Shown here piece after piece: positions 63,636 through 64,000 of a stretch of 64,000 nt of DNA. Below the pieces are notes generated by a model. The model had not been told where the DNA came from, ran no database searches, and saw nothing but the letters and a program-made list of their open reading frames with translations. A program made the translations under genes and the position numbers. The first letter of the stretch is position 1. Every line of letters begins with the position of its first letter. The stretch lies in assembly GCA_903929355.1 (NCBI GenBank), contig CAIYUN010000057.1:1-64000 (forward strand), written 5' to 3'. The DNA comes from an uncultured Opitutaceae bacterium (GTDB lineage Bacteria > Verrucomicrobiota > Verrucomicrobiia > Opitutales > Opitutaceae).

Positions 63636-64000
63636 CCGCGAGGCGGTGCGGGTGCGGCTGCACGCGCTCGGCTTTGACGAGGTGCGGTTTGCCCGCGTCG
63701 CCGGGGCGGACGCCGGCGCGGCGGCCTTGCGCGCGTGGCTCGACGCCGGCCGGCAGGCCGACATGGCGTGGATGGAACGCACCGCCGAAAAGCGCGCCGA
63801 CCCCGGACGCGTGCTGCCCGGCGCCCGCACGGTGATCATGCTCGGGGTGAATTACTGGGGGGGCGGCCGGCGGACAGACGCCAGAGGTCAGACGTCAGAG
63901 GTCAGAGGCCCGAAGCCAGACGCTGGAGGAAGGAGGGCAATCGGCGGCCGGGAGGGAGGGGATGGGGACGCAATCCAAATTCAAGATTCCAAAATCGAAA
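63625..64000 (+). CDS. queG: Epoxyqueuosine reductase, 5' part (truncated by window end)
   Basis: MAWMERTAEKRADPGRVLPGARTVIMLGVNYW; open to the window end; overlaps the aroK stop. Confidence 0.85.
   Translation, partial: MAADREAVRVRLHALGFDEVRFARVAGADAGAAALRAWLDAGRQADMAWMERTAEKRADPGRVLPGARTVIMLGVNYWGGGRRTDARGQTSEVRGPKPDAGGRRAIGGREGGDGDAIQIQDSKIE
63871..64000. repeat. In-frame composite of dispersed repeats inside queG
   Basis: cagacgccagaggtcagacgtcagaggtcagaggcccgaagccaga (16-mer gaggcccgaagccaga is also at 25881-25896) and caatccaaattcaagattccaaaatcgaaa; no stop codon in the queG frame. Confidence 0.8.

What the first reader, a model, noticed from the sequence alone, without database searches (positions are those of the whole stretch)
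63871..64000. Composite of dispersed repeats in frame inside queG
QueG proceeds normally through GARTVIMLGVNYWGGG, then encodes RRTDARGQTSEVRGPKPDAGGRRAIGGREGGDGDAIQIQDSKIE, which is unlike any conserved QueG segment. The DNA is built from known dispersed pieces: the GTCAGAGGTCAG tandem (also intergenic at 52858-52892), the 16-mer gaggcccgaagccaga (also intergenic at 25881-25896), and a caatccaaattcaagattccaaaatcg block (related to 37676 and 44015). There is no stop in 130 nt. This looks like a repeat-derived in-frame peptide insertion in a conserved enzyme.
Basis: partly seen in the sequence, partly recalled or inferred. Interest (0 to 1): 0.8.

Follow-up and report, generated by a model that had tools for sequence, protein, structure and literature searches.

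The report
In-frame heptamer-repeat insert in QueG
In this bacterium of the Verrucomicrobia group, short 7-base DNA repeats scattered through the genome have landed inside conserved enzyme genes (here the tRNA-modifying enzyme QueG, and at least nine others) without breaking the reading frame, so the proteins carry extra floppy loops; this is a rarely documented way for junk-like repeats to become protein.

Summary
The contig continues past base 64000: QueG homology resumes in frame and the single-copy gene runs to a normal C-terminus (447 aa, above the NCBIfam QueG cut-off, predicted QueG fold). The insert is a 50-residue loop (contig 63859-64008) between NYW and WARYALHADYH, built of degenerate tandem heptamers: a GTCAGAG-type array, a G-rich spacer and an AAATCCA-type array. 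A second GTCAGAG array lies in frame near the C-terminus. Both heptamers occur genome-wide on both strands (223 and 67 hits with up to 2 mismatches; reversed-pattern controls 0). Similar in-frame arrays interrupt IleRS, GlnRS, HemF, NadC, PurD, FPP synthase, UvrA, LpxK and GcvP. Congeners have loops of different length and heptamer content at the same places; some lack them. Period-7 signal is strong in congeners' loops and absent from flanking coding DNA. In named enzymes the arrays nearly always have the stop-free, hydrophilic orientation. Most likely this is dispersed heptameric SSR (STRR-like) DNA tolerated in surface loops, comparable in outcome to Rickettsia palindromic elements but a different kind of repeat. 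Expression and function are untested.

The parts
63625..64000 (+). queG, 5' part; the gene ends at contig base 64968 (447 aa), beyond the window
   Evidence: TIGR00276, 297.8 bits, cut-off 200
63859..64000 (+). inserted loop of QueG (50 codons, contig 63859-64008), between NYW and WARYALHADYH
   Evidence: alignments with relatives; codon listing
63862..63936 (+). degenerate GTCAGAG-type (family A) heptamer array, sense orientation
   Evidence: lag-7 score 41.5 bits; TRF period 7
63972..64000 (+). degenerate AAATCCA-type (family B) heptamer array, sense orientation, running to contig base 64004
   Evidence: motif scan; codon listing
25872..25897 (+). related family A array outside queG, sharing the exact 16-mer
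52859..52894 (-). related family A array outside queG
37680..37697 (-). related family B array outside queG
44001..44032 (-). related family B array outside queG

Best explanation
The segment is an in-frame, repeat-derived expansion of a surface loop in an otherwise intact QueG. The inserted DNA belongs to genome-wide families of degenerate tandem heptamers. In the sampled regions most such arrays lie outside recognisable coding sequence; some lie inside genes. Because 7 is not a multiple of 3, each pure array reads the same heptapeptide in all three frames (VRGQRSE for GTCAGAG, KSKIQNP for AAATCCA). It therefore stays open in any frame of the permitted orientation, and only the total inserted length must be a multiple of 3. 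Selection removes arrays that shift the frame, carry the stop-bearing or hydrophobic strand, or fall in structured regions. What survives is in-frame hydrophilic peptide in indel-tolerant loops, which then turns over quickly by gain and loss of repeat units. Shown: in-frame resumption, intact family match, genome-wide arrays, recurrence in at least ten enzymes, orientation bias, differences between species. Inferred: slippage or recombination between arrays as their source, purging by selection, that the peptide is translated and kept, and that it is close to neutral.
For: QueG resumes in frame and exceeds its NCBIfam cut-off despite two inserts. Its model (pLDDT 80, pTM 0.80) has insert 1 as the main low-confidence segment, and the ten best PDB matches are QueG structures. 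The DYH motif and ferredoxin cysteines are invariant. Heptamers are genome-wide on both strands with zero control hits. In-frame arrays occur in nine further enzymes above NCBIfam cut-offs. Nine of nine family B arrays in named enzymes are in sense. Congener loops, not chosen for periodicity, show lag-7 identity 0.380, codon-shuffle mean 0.282 and maximum 0.310. Loops come and go between congeners. The identical protein is predicted on 8 contigs.
Against: No strain-level data show unit-by-unit change. The same few heptamers dominate at many loci, which pure local slippage does not explain. Translation and enzyme activity are not shown. The array survey was sampled around repeat hits, so no genome-wide coding fraction can be given. 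At PurD and GcvP the array partly replaces a normal loop rather than purely adding to it.
Confidence: 0.8

Rival explanations
1. A transposing element of defined length (like a Rickettsia palindromic element or a MITE) inserted into queG, and the heptamers are merely its content.
For: Composites of a family A array followed by a family B array recur at the same QueG loop in several relatives (P0005, P0008, P0010). A dispersed REP-like palindrome sits in frame in the same loop in G001.
Against: Arrays differ in length and boundaries at every site and are found singly elsewhere. No terminal inverted repeats or target duplications were seen by eye around the arrays listed (not tested systematically). 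The shared composite in relatives is as well explained by inheritance from one ancestor.
Confidence: 0.1
2. Each array arose by purely local replication slippage at its own site, with no exchange between sites.
For: Several different heptamers exist (GTCAGAG, AAATCCA, GCATTCC, AAGGTCG and TCAACTT types), all with period 7. PMC4692102 and PMC4679880 report the hypothesis that heptamer abundance reflects polymerase slippage.
Against: Two heptamers dominate at over a hundred sites on both strands of one genome while being rare or absent in many family members. That needs dispersal, homogenisation or a strong sequence bias.
Confidence: 0.25
3. The loops are functional and selected, for example as interaction or regulatory segments, and the heptamers are their raw material.
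For: The loop position is kept in all five congeners for QueG, and the FPP synthase loop keeps a similar pattern (SKxxxxNPKSKx-like) in the congeners where it could be read.
Against: Sequence and length are not conserved, and individual loops are absent in close relatives (HemF, NadC, IleRS, GlnRS).
Confidence: 0.1
4. queG is a decaying pseudogene or the insert is an assembly artefact.
For: Draft genome; short tandem repeats are error-prone in assembly.
Against: 447-codon open frame with a conserved C-terminus; all catalytic and cluster motifs kept; same protein on 8 contigs; comparable loops in independent genomes and proteins.
Confidence: 0.02

Closest known systems
Heptameric simple sequence repeats / STRR (Xanthomonas GGGAATC, Nostoc GGGGATT, PMC4692102; Beggiatoaceae TAACTGA, PMC4679880)
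   Same: Many dispersed 7-bp tandem arrays on both strands, variable in unit number and sequence, mostly near gene ends with a strand-specific geometry.
   Different: Different heptamers; here arrays lie in frame inside many conserved enzymes, with comparative evidence of gain and loss. In Xanthomonas 89-93% are reported intergenic and in Nostoc (Anabaena) 68%.
Rickettsia palindromic elements (RPE), as reviewed in PMC10969869
   Same: Dispersed repeats inserted in frame in unrelated metabolic genes, adding a peptide that the host protein seems to tolerate.
   Different: RPEs are described as about 150-bp elements with a conserved peptide ORF; these are tandem heptamers of variable length and content.
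QueG, epoxyqueuosine reductase (TIGR00276; PDB 5d08, 5d0b, 5t8y, 5d6s)
   Same: Domain order, DYH motif, ferredoxin cysteines and overall fold.
   Different: About 40 extra residues before the DYH motif and about 30 extra in the C-terminal helical repeat domain, both heptamer-derived.

Membership tests
QueG (TIGR00276) | score above the curated cut-off | tested here: met
   297.8 bits against 200
QueG (TIGR00276) | DYH motif and two 4Fe-4S cysteine motifs | tested here: met
   D137 Y138 H139 and C237, C240, C243, C247, C290, C293, C297 invariant in 50 sequences; motif named in PMC4646009
QueG (TIGR00276) | reduces epoxyqueuosine in tRNA | not testable with these tools
   needs an assay; QueA is present in the genome
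Dispersed heptameric SSR / STRR | tandem units of 7 bp | tested here: met
   lag-7 scores and TRF period 7
Dispersed heptameric SSR / STRR | many dispersed copies on both strands | tested here: met
   116/107 and 43/24 hits, controls 0
Dispersed heptameric SSR / STRR | mostly intergenic | tested here: inconclusive
   most sampled arrays lie outside recognisable coding sequence, but the sample is biased and gene calls were approximate
Rickettsia palindromic elements | in-frame insertion in many unrelated conserved genes | tested here: met
   ten enzymes
Rickettsia palindromic elements | element of about 150 bp with a conserved peptide | tested here: not met
   arrays from about 30 to over 100 bp with variable units and ends
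Intein or other excised protein insert | splicing domain inside the insert | tested here: not met
   no such Pfam domain; the insert is only about 40 aa longer than the short loop of relatives

The most novel reading that the evidence does not exclude
A dedicated process copies or adds 7-nt units at dispersed sites (for example templated addition at breaks), continually generating new in-frame protein loops across the proteome of this family. Different heptamers occupying the same loop in sister species, as in GlnRS, would be its signature.
Probability: 0.08. Interest if true: 0.9.

Novelty: new variant of a known kind. Interest (0 to 1): 0.62.

Why it matters
It extends the idea of repeats becoming protein from Rickettsia palindromic elements to a tandem heptamer system in Verrucomicrobiota. 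The 7-versus-3 arithmetic gives a simple rule for why heptamer arrays can enter genes in any frame of one orientation. With at least ten affected housekeeping enzymes, and close relatives that lack individual loops, the questions of how such arrays spread and whether the inserted peptides are neutral become directly testable.

Tried and rejected
The first AlphaFold run with 30 close homologues was poor (pLDDT 61.7) and was replaced by a more diverse alignment. A first alignment mis-oriented minus-strand loci and was redone. Codon-score gene calling alone mislabelled several arrays, including the second QueG array, so enzymes were confirmed by family models. QueA's extra loop was tested as another case: no period-7 signal. 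Pseudogene and assembly-error readings were rejected. A resemblance of the AAATCCA unit to the Xanthomonas and Nostoc heptamers (shared A[AT]TCC core) was judged compatible with chance. Literature searches found no paper on these heptamers in Verrucomicrobia; the library is open-access only, so absence is weak evidence.

Full report
WHAT IS THERE. The window is bases 1-64000 of contig C57 (129,898 bases) of a 3.8-Mb draft genome, 96% complete. The related QueG records that carry names are mostly Opitutaceae / Opitutae, Verrucomicrobiota. Reading on, queG continues: TIGR00276 matches C57:63661-63873 (model 6-76) and 63997-64713 (model 85-307) in one frame of 477 codons without stops. The ORF from ATG is 447 aa. 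The foreign part is the 50-residue loop GGGRRTDARGQTSEVRGPKPDAGGRRAIGGREGGDGDAIQIQDSKIENPL between NYW and WARYALHADYH.

THE INSERT IS HEPTAMERS. Written in sevens, the DNA is CGGACAG ACGCCAG AGGTCAG ACGTCAG AGGTCAG AGGCCCG AAGCCAG ACGCTGG AGGAAGG, then a G-rich spacer, then an AAATCCA-type stretch CAATCCAAATTCAAGATTCCAAAATCGAAAATCC. The lag-7 score is 41.5 bits here and 50.8 bits at a second in-frame array near the C-terminus (contig 64704-64770, peptide QGSEVRGQKSEVIGQKPEARR). The best score in 100 Markov simulations of 93 kb is 23.4 bits.

GENOME-WIDE FAMILIES. GTCAGAGGTCAGAGGTCAG (family A; up to 2 mismatches) occurs 116 times on one strand and 107 on the other, and AAATCCAAAATCCAAAATC (family B) 43 and 24 times; the reversed control patterns never occur. 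These counts include overlapping registers of one array. With one mismatch the two patterns are found in 20 and 44 of 100 family genomes, patchily, and the second in 11 of 117 genomes across the phylum. Arrays were mapped in 420 kb of this genome sampled around hits. Family B arrays have sense-coding DNA on their 3' side in 22 cases and antisense in 2; family A arrays have coding DNA mainly on their 5' side. This resembles the geometry reported for Xanthomonas GGGAATC repeats (PMC4692102).

OTHER ENZYMES. In-frame arrays also interrupt IleRS, HemF, NadC, PurD, farnesyl diphosphate synthase, UvrA, LpxK, GlnRS and GcvP, all above an NCBIfam cut-off, and MenE and others with less certainty. The nine family B arrays in named enzymes (MenE, IleRS, HemF, PurD, FPP synthase, UvrA, GlnRS, GcvP, QueG) all read KSKIQNP-like (hydropathy -1.8) and none the equally open but hydrophobic WILDFGF (+1.3). 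Family A arrays are in sense except one in GcvP, where a TGG stands in place of the TGA that the antisense heptamer would give.

TURNOVER BETWEEN SPECIES. Nine loops were compared with five congeners and, where available, another genus. HemF has a 21-residue loop here and 5 residues in G001 and G005; NadC has 27 here, 43 in G005 and 4 in G001. In GlnRS this genome has SKFQNPNSKI where G002 has SALRTPHSAI, from a different heptamer, and G001 and G004 have almost nothing. FPP synthase has heptamer-type loops in the four congeners where the whole loop could be read. In 45 loops of relatives alone, lag-7 identity is 0.380, with echoes at 14 and 21; codon shuffles average 0.282 with a maximum of 0.310. 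Flanking coding DNA gives 0.270. In QueG itself, database relatives carry A-then-B composites of different content (P0005, P0008, P0010), and some carry arrays at the C-terminal site or before the first cysteine motif.

PROTEIN. The core is intact: the DYH motif, implicated in catalysis (PMC4646009), and the ferredoxin cysteines are invariant across 50 sequences. The model (pLDDT 80, pTM 0.80) is least confident in residues 79-85 and 88-120 (insert 1), 223-235 and 306-312; the second array is modelled within two helices of the C-terminal domain. The ten closest solved structures are all QueG, with target-normalised TM-scores of 0.79-0.83. QueA is present in the genome. An identical protein is predicted on 8 contigs, which speaks against an assembly error although those contigs may not be independent.

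HOW IT PROBABLY WORKS. A tandem array whose unit length is coprime to 3 reads one heptapeptide in all three frames, so the permitted orientation is open wherever it lands; only the net length must be a multiple of three. With selection against stops, hydrophobic stretches and disruption of structure, this predicts what is seen: sense, hydrophilic, variable loops. How arrays spread is not shown; slippage with exchange between arrays is the simplest guess. A palindromic REP-like repeat in frame in the same loop of G001, and a degenerate relative in G004, suggests that the loop is tolerant of repeats in general.

NOVELTY. Dispersed heptamers and in-frame repeats are each known (PMC4692102, PMC4679880, PMC10969869); their combination in conserved enzymes of Opitutaceae was not found in the literature searched. 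Not shown: translation, enzyme activity and strain-level dynamics.

Noticed in passing
G000:C57:64704-64770 (L012:9705-9771), just beyond the window: A second in-frame GTCAGAG-type array in the same queG, near the C-terminal helical repeats.
   Followed up: yes
L018 (G001:C77:1887-1933) and the G004 queG (L017): A REP-like palindrome (GCGACGCCCTCGTC...GACGAGGGCGTCGC) lies in frame in the same QueG loop in G001, with a degenerate form in G004; the 14-mer has 70 hits in G001 against 12 for the control.
   Followed up: partly
window 24770-24799 and 34170-34202; G000:C57:73775-73903: Other heptamer arrays with different units: TGCGGAC/TGCGGAT type and AAGGTCG type.
   Followed up: no
G000:C34:79230-79354 (L321): QueA of this genome also has an expanded loop of about 30 extra residues, without period-7 signal.
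   Followed up: partly
G000:C81:92844-92911 and C81:100045-100134: Two paralogous membrane/TPR proteins carry family A arrays of different length at the same place, a natural within-genome comparison.
   Followed up: no
G000:C87:44872-44907: GcvP holds an antisense family A array in which TGG replaces the expected TGA stop.
   Followed up: partly
sampled arrays of G000: Arrays have a strand-specific position relative to genes: family B abuts coding DNA on its 3' side in sense, family A on its 5' side, similar to the Xanthomonas heptamers.
   Followed up: partly
family B unit AAATCCA: It shares an A[AT]TCC core with the Xanthomonas (reverse complement CGATTCC) and Nostoc (CCAATCC) heptamers of PMC4692102; this may be chance.
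   Followed up: no
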